A stretch of DNA of 64,000 bases from Nodosilinea sp. E11 (lineage in GTDB: Bacteria; Cyanobacteriota; Cyanobacteriia; Phormidesmidales; Phormidesmidaceae), in NCBI RefSeq assembly GCF_032813545.1, contig NZ_CP136520.1, positions 2,970,001 through 3,034,000 on the forward strand. The letters run 5' to 3'. Position numbers and translations under genes: made by a program. Shown piece by piece: positions 12,874 to 14,731 of this stretch. The notes under the pieces are model-generated. The model was given only the letters and a program-made list of their open reading frames with translations, did not search any database and was not told where the DNA came from. Every line of letters starts with the position of its first letter. The first letter of the stretch is position 1.

Positions 12874-13122
12874 CTAGTTGCGATAGTGCAGCTCTTCTAG
12901 CCAAACGCGCAGTTCATCGTCAGAGGCGTGGTTGATGGTCAGTTGAGTCAGGGGGTCGTAGGCATTCCATAGGGTTGCGCCCGAGTCGTCGGTGGCTGGC
13001 CAGACATGGGGTTCGTTGGTGGCATTTAGATGAGCTAAGATGCCGTGCCAAACGCTAGCCAGTTGGGTAACGAGGCTGGGGCGCTGGTGAGCAGTATTGA
13101 TGGGCCAGTAGCTGCTGTTCAT
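12874..13122 (-). CDS. Small conserved-looking protein of unknown function
   Basis: An 82-residue soluble protein with a good ribosome binding site (AGGAG, about 7 bases before the ATG). The N-terminus reads MNSSYWPINT and the C-terminus ends DDELRVWLEELHYRN, a pattern I associate with small cyanobacterial hypotheticals, but no function is known to me. The middle contains a Trp-rich segment. The gene borders the dihydropyrimidinase remnant and is divergent from the riboswitch-controlled DUF4278 gene. Confidence 0.65.
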   Translation of the reverse strand: MNSSYWPINTAHQRPSLVTQLASVWHGILAHLNATNEPHVWPATDDSGATLWNAYDPLTQLTINHASDDELRVWLEELHYRN

Positions 13123-13248
13123 AGTAAATCTCCTAATTTATGGGTGAGGTGTGTCTGCGAACTTCCATTCACACTCTAAGAATAGATTTCTGTATCAAAA
13201 AGAACAAAAGCTTTCTGTCATGGCAAACATGAAAAACTTTCATGGGTA

Positions 13249-13262
13249 GTACGGCGGCCTAC
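13249..13262. promoter_or_regulatory. Possible NtcA site (GTA-N8-TAC)
   Basis: The 14-bp palindromic consensus GTA-N8-TAC of the nitrogen regulator NtcA occurs upstream of the riboswitch. A -10-like TATTAT lies at 13312-13317, about 50 bp further, not the 22-bp spacing of a classical NtcA-activated promoter. The motif is short enough to occur by chance; only its position before a glutamine-sensing leader makes it worth listing. Confidence 0.25.
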
Positions 13263-13330
13263 TCCTCTATGTAGAATTATCAAAAGCTGATATTTTGAAA
13301 AAACAGTAGCGTATTATACAGACATAGAGA

Positions 13331-13415
13331 TAAAACGTTCATCTTTTGCCTTGGTGCATGCCCCTCAGGCACCTGGCCGAAAGACGGAAGTAGGGACACT
13401 CCCGAAGGAACGCGC
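13331..13415 (+). ncRNA. Glutamine riboswitch (glnA RNA / glutamine-I type)
   Basis: The leader of the DUF4278 gene contains the conserved core GGAAGTAGGG, a short GGG/CCC hairpin and CGAAGGAACGC, which is the hallmark of the glnA RNA that binds L-glutamine. Helix P1 is formed by CGTTC (13336-13340) and GAACG (13408-13412). An optional second helix GGTGC/GCACC (13353-13357 with 13369-13373) fits the three-way junction. The aptamer ends about 22 bases before the AGGAGG ribosome binding site, so control of translation initiation is plausible. Glutamine riboswitches of this class control nitrogen-assimilation genes in cyanobacteria. Confidence 0.85.
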
Positions 13416-13434
13416 CTCACTACGCATCGCTTCT

Positions 13435-13440
13435 AGGAGG
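13435..13440 (+). promoter_or_regulatory. Strong Shine-Dalgarno of the DUF4278 gene
   Basis: AGGAGG lies 7 bases before the ATG at 13448. Its closeness to the riboswitch makes it the likely expression platform target. Confidence 0.7.
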
Positions 13441-13447
13441 CGACCTT

Positions 13448-13939
13448 ATGAAACTCACCTATCGCGGCATTAGCTACGATGCTACCCCTAGCGCAGCTCC
13501 ACAGCTGAGCAAAACCCTGGCTGTAGGCCGCTATCGCGGGGCTCCGGTGGTTTTGAATACGCTGGCCGAACTGCCCGCTCAGCCCGGTGACAATTTGACC
13601 TGGCGCGGTGTGCCCCACCGCACAGGCATTGCGGCTCCGGTCGCGGCCACCCCCGTGCCACCCCTTGAAATTCCTGCTGTTGCAGCTAGCATTGCAGACC
13701 CGGTTGTTACCCCAGAAGTAGGTCCTGAGATGACTCCCACTAACATTCCTGACTTGGCTAGAAATCTGTTCATTCGCCGCCACCAGCGCAGCCGTCGGCG
13801 CGAACAGGGCATGATGGTGCGGTTAGCCGCTGAAGTCGGTATTCCCGTAGAAGATGCGGCCCACTACGAAAGCCACATTCAGGGCAAAATGCCCCACGAT
13901 TTCTCTGGTTACGATCGCGGCTCAGCCGCCATGAGCTAA
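13448..13939 (+). CDS. DUF4278-domain protein under glutamine riboswitch control
   Basis: A 163-residue protein whose N-terminus MKLTYRGISY is the signature of DUF4278. A second YRG (residues 29-31) and a WRG (about 52-54) repeat the motif, followed by a Pro/Val-rich linker, a basic segment (RRHQRSRRREQ, about 110-120) and a helical C-terminus. DUF4278-type small proteins include, to my knowledge, PirA, a PII-interacting regulator of arginine synthesis in Synechocystis; this protein is larger and its role is not known. The riboswitch upstream ties its expression to glutamine level, which supports a role in nitrogen control. A strong terminator follows. Confidence 0.88.
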   Translation: MKLTYRGISYDATPSAAPQLSKTLAVGRYRGAPVVLNTLAELPAQPGDNLTWRGVPHRTGIAAPVAATPVPPLEIPAVAASIADPVVTPEVGPEMTPTNIPDLARNLFIRRHQRSRRREQGMMVRLAAEVGIPVEDAAHYESHIQGKMPHDFSGYDRGSAAMS

Positions 13940-13942
13940 CGC

Positions 13943-14731
13943 TTAAGTCTTTACGGCAGATGGCCCGGTGCGCTGGCACTCCGGGCCTTTTTTGTGGGCG
14001 ATCGCATCAATGTCGGCCCACTCTAGCTCGGTCAACGGCTGGGTTACGAGTTGCGCGCCAAAACAGTCGCTAGCGGCCTGGGTGAGCGAGGCGATCACCT
14101 GATCTAGGGTGAGTGTGCTCTGCATGGCGATCTGGGCTTGGCTGGGCGGCAGCGCAGGAGTCTGAAAGACCTGCTGCCAGAGGGTTGGGTCGGGGTGAAG
14201 AGCGATCGATCCATGCTGTAGCAGGTAGGCACCCCGTCGTCGCTGGGCGCTGCCGATCACTTTGTGGTCGTGGGCATCGACCAAATCGGCGCTGGTGGCC
14301 AGGGCAAAGCAGTTGGGCGATCGGCTATAGTCTCGGCCTGGTTGGCCAAACTTGAGGGATACACCCAGTTCTGCCCAGCCTTTGATCAAGAACTGGCACA
14401 GAAATTGATAGGCCTGGTCACGGTTTCCAGCCAGCTGCGAGGTCACCACCGCATAGGTTAGATCGCCCTGGTGCAGCACGCCGCGCCCGCCTGTGGGTCG
14501 CTGCACCAGATCCACAGGCTGCCCCTGCCAGCTCAGGTGTTGCCAGTGCTCAGGAATTTGGTTGCGCTGGCTGACGCCCAGCGAGATTGCCGCCGGATGC
14601 CAGGTGTAGAACCGCAGCGTGGGCGGGTGGCCGTGGTGCTGGTGCTGGTCGAGCAGCCAGGTATCGATCGCCATGTGCACGGCACCGGGCGCTTCTAGGA
14701 ATGGAAGCAGCCGCCAGGGGGTTCCACTCAC
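13943..14731 (-). CDS. Octanoyltransferase LipM-like / lipoate-protein ligase family protein
   Basis: Transfers octanoyl or lipoyl groups to lipoyl domains (pyruvate dehydrogenase E2, GcvH). The 262-residue protein has the BirA/LplA fold motifs [11 protein letters not shown] (77-87) and [18 protein letters not shown] (158-175), with Cys141 in SPNCF. A cysteine at this place is the acyl carrier in LipM-type octanoyltransferases and argues for LipM rather than an ATP-dependent LplA. Its start codon overlaps the stop of lipA by 4 bp (ATGA), so the two are cotranscribed, lipA first; LipM would make the octanoyl-protein that LipA sulfurates. The last 15 codons carry the terminator of the convergent DUF4278 gene. 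Confidence 0.82.
13962..13993 (+). terminator. Intrinsic terminator of the DUF4278 gene
   Basis: A perfect 7-bp GC stem (GGCCCGG 13962-13968 with CCGGGCC 13981-13987) is followed by TTTTTT (13988-13993). It lies 22 bases after the DUF4278 stop codon, inside the 3' coding end of the convergent lipM-like gene. Confidence 0.85.

What the first reader, a model, noticed from the sequence alone, without database searches (positions are those of the whole stretch)
13331..13447. Glutamine riboswitch in front of a DUF4278 gene
The core elements GGAAGTAGGG and CGAAGGAACGC, the P1 helix CGTTC/GAACG and an optional third helix match the glnA RNA. This class is known for nitrogen-assimilation genes in cyanobacteria. 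Here it controls a 163-residue DUF4278 protein, larger than PirA-type proteins, with a basic linker. That makes the protein a candidate new nitrogen-status effector. A GTA-N8-TAC (possible NtcA site) lies 75 bp upstream, suggesting two-layer nitrogen control.
Basis: partly seen in the sequence, partly recalled or inferred. Interest (0 to 1): 0.72.

Follow-up and report, generated by a model that had tools for sequence, protein, structure and literature searches.

The report
Glutamine switch on glutamine-synthetase inhibitor gene
The RNA really is a glutamine riboswitch, but the gene behind it is not a new effector: it encodes IF17 (GifB), the cyanobacterial protein that shuts down glutamine synthetase when nitrogen is plentiful, and riboswitch control of that gene has already been published.

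Summary
In detail: Rfam RF01739 matches 13334-13416 (+) with 53.7 bits against a cut-off of 35, and the 163-aa gene behind it starts with DUF4278. The "basic linker" and C-terminus (aa 100-163) match the glutamine-synthetase inactivating factor IF7A (E 3.4e-17), with the three conserved IF arginines (R105, R118, R125). DUF4278 + IF7 is the architecture of IF17/GifB, and a glutamine-activated type-1 riboswitch in the gifB leader is published (review PMC6316151). PII binding and a "new effector" are not supported. Two-layer control is supported, but through a different NtcA box: GTAGCGTATTATAC at 13306-13319, overlapping a -10 box. In 175 related loci, 115 carry a perfect GTA-N8-TAC within 60 nt of the aptamer (2.2 expected by shuffling). 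A hairpin starting exactly at aptamer base C60 buries the Shine-Dalgarno sequence. By-products outside the window: this genome has five such switches, in front of two IF17s, a DUF4278-only protein, a DUF4278-PirA fusion and a 38-aa predicted membrane peptide. The finding itself is a further member of a known kind.

The parts
13306..13319 (+). NtcA box GTAGCGTATTATAC (GTA-N8-TAC), predicted repressor site overlapping the -10 box
   Evidence: perfect consensus; kept in 13 of 15 other loci of this IF17 subtype; 115 of 175 glutamine-riboswitch loci have a perfect box within 60 nt upstream, 2.2 expected from shuffles
13312..13317 (+). probable -10 element TATTAT; transcription start inferred about 13323-13325
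   Evidence: inference from sequence and from alignment of the five own-genome leaders; not in the sigma-70 scan output, so unproven
13334..13416 (+). glutamine-I (glnA-type) riboswitch aptamer
   Evidence: RF01739, 53.7 bits, cut-off 35
13336..13412 (+). P1 helix, arms 13336-13340 / 13408-13412
   Evidence: sequence and cmscan structure
13386..13387 (+). equivalents of aptamer G22-G23, which order on glutamine binding
   Evidence: sequence; numbering from PMC5393176 and PMC11477058
13413..13413 (+). equivalent of aptamer C60: pairs with G23 when bound, and is the outermost base of the Shine-Dalgarno hairpin
   Evidence: C in 161 of 161 loci; hairpin register starts here
13413..13442 (+). expression platform: hairpin CGCCTC 13413-13418 / GAGGCG 13437-13442 burying the Shine-Dalgarno AGGAGG (13435-13440)
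13448..13939 (+). gifB-type gene, 163-aa IF17 (glutamine synthetase inactivating factor)
   Evidence: DUF4278 + IF7 domain, full-length homology to a Synechocystis IF17
13448..13612 (+). DUF4278 domain, aa 1-55
   Evidence: PF14105, E 3.7e-12
13745..13936 (+). IF7-type domain, aa 100-163, with R105, R118, R125
   Evidence: NF052599 E 3.4e-17; arginines invariant in alignment

Best explanation
This is a gifB gene of a Nodosilinea-like cyanobacterium, one of two IF17 paralogues in the genome, under two nitrogen controls. When nitrogen is scarce, NtcA sits on the box over the -10 element and blocks transcription (inferred). When ammonium arrives, NtcA leaves and the leader is made. If glutamine has also built up, it binds the aptamer, which pulls G23 into a pair with C60. 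C60 is the outermost base of the hairpin that hides the Shine-Dalgarno sequence, so binding weakens that hairpin and translation rises (inferred; ON direction is shown experimentally for Synechocystis gifB, not here). IF17 then binds and inactivates glutamine synthetase through its arginine-rich C-terminal domain, closing a negative feedback on glutamine; DUF4278 adds stability and affinity (shown for Synechocystis IF17, inferred here).
For: RF01739 hit. DUF4278 plus IF7A match to aa 100-163, E 3.4e-17. Invariant R105/R118/R125; in the Synechocystis salina protein the last one is R110, the residue reported as most important in IF17, and the reported K102 is R117 here. That S. salina gene has the same riboswitch, a GTA-N8-TAC and a Shine-Dalgarno complement behind P1. 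Published: glutamine riboswitch in the gifB leader activates IF17, NtcA represses gif genes (PMC6316151). NtcA box. Hairpin starts at C60 with at least 6 pairs in 68% of loci, next-best register 40%, upstream registers at most 1%; compensating changes, e.g. CACCTC/GAGGTG in L032 and L045, CGTTCC/GGAACG in L166 and L167, CACAAC/GTTGTG in L084. Synonymous changes dominate in the C-terminal 60 codons, e.g. 16 to 0, 18 to 1.
Against: The IF7A score (62.4, or 64.5 in the genome scan) is below that model's equivalog cut-off of 70, so the domain is divergent; the paralogue L001 passes with 92.8. In the folding model, blocking C60 costs about 2.1 kcal/mol but does not open the hairpin (Shine-Dalgarno unpaired 1% to 4%), so the C60 competition alone does not explain a switch. 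No expression or binding data exist for this gene.
Confidence: 0.92

Rival explanations
1. The protein is a new PII-binding effector of the PirA kind.
For: It carries DUF4278, and a DUF4278-PirA fusion does exist elsewhere in the same genome under the same riboswitch (L005).
Against: No PirA match in the window protein; the C-terminus is IF7-type with all three arginines.
Confidence: 0.03
2. A diverged IF17 paralogue that has changed partner, for example inhibiting GSIII (GlnN) instead of GSI (GlnA), or acting in other conditions than the canonical paralogue L001.
For: The genome has two riboswitch-controlled IF17s and both GSI-like and GSIII genes; the window protein has a distinct tail (YESHIQGKMPHDF instead of YWNHIQGKVHPSFWATY) conserved in its subtype.
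Against: The three arginines and the IQGK motif are kept; no IF is known to act on GSIII (own knowledge).
Confidence: 0.12
3. The aptamer is an OFF switch: glutamine-bound P1 stacks on the Shine-Dalgarno hairpin and stabilises it.
For: P1 and the hairpin are adjacent and compatible as secondary structures (13412/13413), and the fold model keeps both.
Against: Glutamine activates Synechocystis gifB through the same aptamer (PMC6316151); in the bound structure C60 is taken by G23, which breaks the continuous stack; repression of the inhibitor by glutamine would invert the feedback.
Confidence: 0.06

Closest known systems
Synechocystis gifB / IF17 with its type-1 glutamine riboswitch (Klahn et al. 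2018, as described in PMC6316151)
   Same: same aptamer class, same DUF4278 + IF7 protein, NtcA control, Shine-Dalgarno complement behind P1 in the S. salina relative
   Different: about 32% protein identity, divergent IF7 tail, second paralogue in the same genome, longer P2 arm
IF7 (GifA)
   Same: C-terminal domain homologous
   Different: IF7 lacks DUF4278; the own-genome IF7-like gene (L013) has an NtcA box but no riboswitch hit
[quoted passage not shown]
   Same: a small nitrogen-excess regulator; DUF4278-fused PirA shares the N-terminal domain and the riboswitch (L005)
   Different: the window protein has no PirA domain
Glutamine-II (downstream-peptide, RF01704) riboswitch
   Same: same ligand pocket; also precedes DUF4278 genes in picocyanobacteria (PMC6698751, PMC6316151)
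   Different: pseudoknot fold; not matched in the window

Membership tests
Glutamine-I riboswitch (RF01739) | covariance-model score above gathering | tested here: met
   53.7 against 35 bits, full length
Glutamine-I riboswitch (RF01739) | three-way junction with loop-E core, G22/G23 and C60 | tested here: met
   all present in the sequence; C60 is C in 161 of 161 loci
Glutamine-I riboswitch (RF01739) | selective L-glutamine binding | not testable with these tools
   needs in-line probing or calorimetry
IF17 (GifB) | N-terminal DUF4278 | tested here: met
   PF14105 E 3.7e-12
IF17 (GifB) | C-terminal IF7 homology | tested here: met
   NF052599 E 3.4e-17 over profile 3-66 of 66
IF17 (GifB) | score above the IF7A equivalog cut-off | tested here: inconclusive
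   62.4-64.5 against 70; the model is for stand-alone IF7A, not IF17
IF17 (GifB) | three conserved arginines, incl. the equivalent of R110 | tested here: met
   R105, R118, R125
IF17 (GifB) | inhibits glutamine synthetase | not testable with these tools
   needs an enzyme assay
PirA | PirA domain (NF050139) | tested here: not met
   no match in the window protein
Glutamine-II riboswitch (RF01704) | covariance-model score above gathering | tested here: not met
   only RF01739 reached gathering in the window

The most novel reading that the evidence does not exclude
Glutamine-I riboswitches with an NtcA box on the promoter define a regulon of small proteins wider than the published DUF4278/IF17 set: DUF4278-PirA fusions (answering the published doubt whether N-extended PirA is real), stand-alone IF7, and at least two conserved families of uncharacterised predicted membrane peptides (38-53 aa single-span; 68-75 aa double-span) that may tune other nitrogen steps. 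The window gene would be the second, specialised IF17 of this regulon.
Probability: 0.55. Interest if true: 0.5.

Novelty: new member of a known kind. Interest (0 to 1): 0.27.

Why it matters
For the window locus: a routine but firm annotation (glutamine riboswitch + gifB) that corrects a 'new effector' reading. For the field: the comparison gives a testable common layout, an NtcA box on the -10 plus a Shine-Dalgarno hairpin starting at aptamer base C60, and a list of uncharacterised small proteins made on the same glutamine signal, including DUF4278-PirA fusions whose existence was left open in the PirA paper (PMC8092223).

Tried and rejected
A sigma-70 scan found no scoring promoter upstream of the aptamer and no terminator in 13150-14010, so a transcription-terminating platform was rejected. 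Simple competition for C60 as a complete switch: modelled, costs about 2.1 kcal/mol but leaves the hairpin closed. Shuffle control on longest hairpin length alone was uninformative, since shuffled leaders reach similar lengths; the register and swap tests were used instead, and the swap test on non-consensus hexamers is modest (24% own against 12% swapped with 5 or more pairs). Solved structures: no real match. PHROGs: only a weak 16-residue match. The Klahn 2018 and Ren 2015 papers are not held, so their content is taken from reviews. My first regex classes contained errors and were replaced by profile-based classes.

Full report
OBSERVATION. A scan of the whole 64-kb window against Rfam gave a single hit above gathering, RF01739 (glutamine riboswitch, glnA type) at 13334-13416 on the + strand with 53.7 bits (cut-off 35), E 5.4e-9, covering the whole model. 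P1, P2 with a longer arm, P3 and the loop-E core can be read directly. The gene that follows starts at ATG 13448 and encodes 163 aa with DUF4278 at its N-terminus.

WHAT THE PROTEIN IS. It scores 62.4 bits, below the equivalog cut-off of 70 for stand-alone IF7A. A ten-protein alignment keeps R105, R118 and R125 in all rows. The best named reference at hand, the Synechocystis salina relative (L235, 149 aa), aligns end to end with 32% identity; its last arginine is residue 110 and its lysine 102 aligns with R117 here. The review PMC6316151 reports three conserved arginines, R110 as the most important one in IF17, and K102 as adding affinity. DUF4278 covers the N-terminal part of IF17. The protein is therefore an IF17 (GifB). 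L235 itself has the riboswitch at the same place.

PUBLISHED CONTEXT. The same review says that glutamine aptamers in cyanobacterial genomes are mainly associated with DUF4278 genes, that the gifB leader of Synechocystis holds a type-1 glutamine riboswitch that activates IF17 synthesis, and that NtcA represses gif genes.

TRANSCRIPTIONAL LAYER. The second overlaps a -10-like TATTAT. In 15 other loci with the same IF17 subtype, 13 keep a perfect box at -28 to -30 from P1, and none keeps the upstream box. In 175 sequence-distinct glutamine-riboswitch loci, 115 have a perfect box within 60 nt upstream, mostly at -22 to -32; shuffled upstream regions give 2.2 and the local background predicts about 4.5 (0.026 per locus times 175). 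By class: 53 of 57 DUF4278-IF7, 37 of 47 DUF4278-only, 14 of 16 DUF4278-PirA, 1 of 11 IF7-only, 9 of 32 others. Many loci come from related genomes, so these counts are not independent events. That the box is an NtcA operator is inference from the consensus.

TRANSLATIONAL LAYER. Directly behind P1, CGCCTC (13413-13418) can pair with GAGGCG (13437-13442), hiding AGGAGG (13435-13440). Across 161 loci the base after P1 is always C, and pairing with the start-codon region of 6 or more pairs beginning exactly at this base occurs in 68% of loci, in 40% when begun one base later and in at most 1% when begun upstream. Variants with changes on both strands exist: L032 and L045 (CACCTC/GAGGTG), L084 (CACAAC/GTTGTG), L166 and L167 (CGTTCC/GGAACG); others pair with one bulged A, as in L001 (CGCCCCAA / TTGG-A-GGCG). 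The swap control on non-consensus sequences is positive but modest (24% against 12%). This base corresponds to C60 of the crystallised aptamer, which pairs with G23 only when glutamine is bound (PMC5393176, PMC11477058). The inferred mechanism is that glutamine binding takes C60 away from the hairpin. In an energy model this costs about 2.1 kcal/mol but does not open the hairpin by itself, so folding kinetics, ribosome competition or steric effects must contribute. The ON direction rests on Synechocystis experiments, not on data for this gene.

THE GENOME'S OTHER COPIES. The window lies in a 6.1-Mb genome (G000) whose nearest named relatives are Nodosilinea strains. It has five RF01739 sites, in front of: L001, canonical IF17 (IF7A 92.8 bits); L002, a 56-aa DUF4278-only protein; the window gene; L004, a 38-aa predicted single-span peptide without any family; L005, DUF4278 fused to a PirA domain (NF050139, 55.7 bits, cut-off 50). 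An IF7-like gene with a GTA-N8-TAC box and no riboswitch lies at C7:2420702. In the family, 63 of 65 genomes have at least one site; in the phylum sample, 58 of 292. Profile classes of 163 downstream proteins: 57 DUF4278-IF7, 47 DUF4278 only, 16 DUF4278-PirA, 11 IF7 only, 32 other.

SIDE RESULT. The PirA paper left open whether N-extended PirA versions are false annotations. A class-wide search shows many PirA domains in open frames of 130-186 aa, and in at least a dozen genomes a glutamine riboswitch lies a few hundred bases upstream on the same strand (compare coordinates, e.g. G005 C80, G027 C1, G170 C2, G215 C100, G298 C7, G338 C1). This is outside the window.

VERDICT. Observation confirmed; interpretation partly supported. 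The locus is a gifB gene with a glutamine-I riboswitch: a further member of a known kind, interest 0.27. The regulon-level by-products deserve more attention than the locus itself.

Noticed in passing
L005 1549-2045 (G000:C7:4614663-4615208): DUF4278 fused to a PirA domain (NF050139 above cut-off) behind a glutamine riboswitch; such fusions recur in many genomes.
   Followed up: partly
L004 1501-1756 (G000:C7:4593382): Glutamine riboswitch in front of a 38-aa predicted single-span membrane peptide with no family match; relatives in L034, L060, L072, L094, L148, L150, L151, L153, L157, L164, L173, third-position changes dominate in most pairs.
   Followed up: partly
L069, L077, L081, L083, L084, L086, L091, L046, L059: A second uncharacterised family of 68-75 aa predicted double-span membrane proteins behind glutamine riboswitches in other cyanobacterial families.
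   Followed up: no
L021, L140, L187; L044, L056, L068, L088: Two further uncharacterised small soluble protein families (89 aa; 59-64 aa with FDFDLWA-like core) behind glutamine riboswitches.
   Followed up: no
L071 and L154: Three glutamine riboswitch + 56-aa DUF4278 units in tandem, about 300 bases apart.
   Followed up: no
L016, L022, L025, L029, L031, L035, L037, L038: Glutamine riboswitches directly in front of short IF7-like proteins without DUF4278, mostly without the upstream GTA-N8-TAC box.
   Followed up: partly
L156 about 403: A riboswitch followed by what looks like a decayed IF17 gene: the reading frame ends after a few codons.
   Followed up: no
window 12874-13122 (-): Divergent 82-aa ORF next to the riboswitch gene, no Pfam or NCBIfam match.
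   Followed up: no
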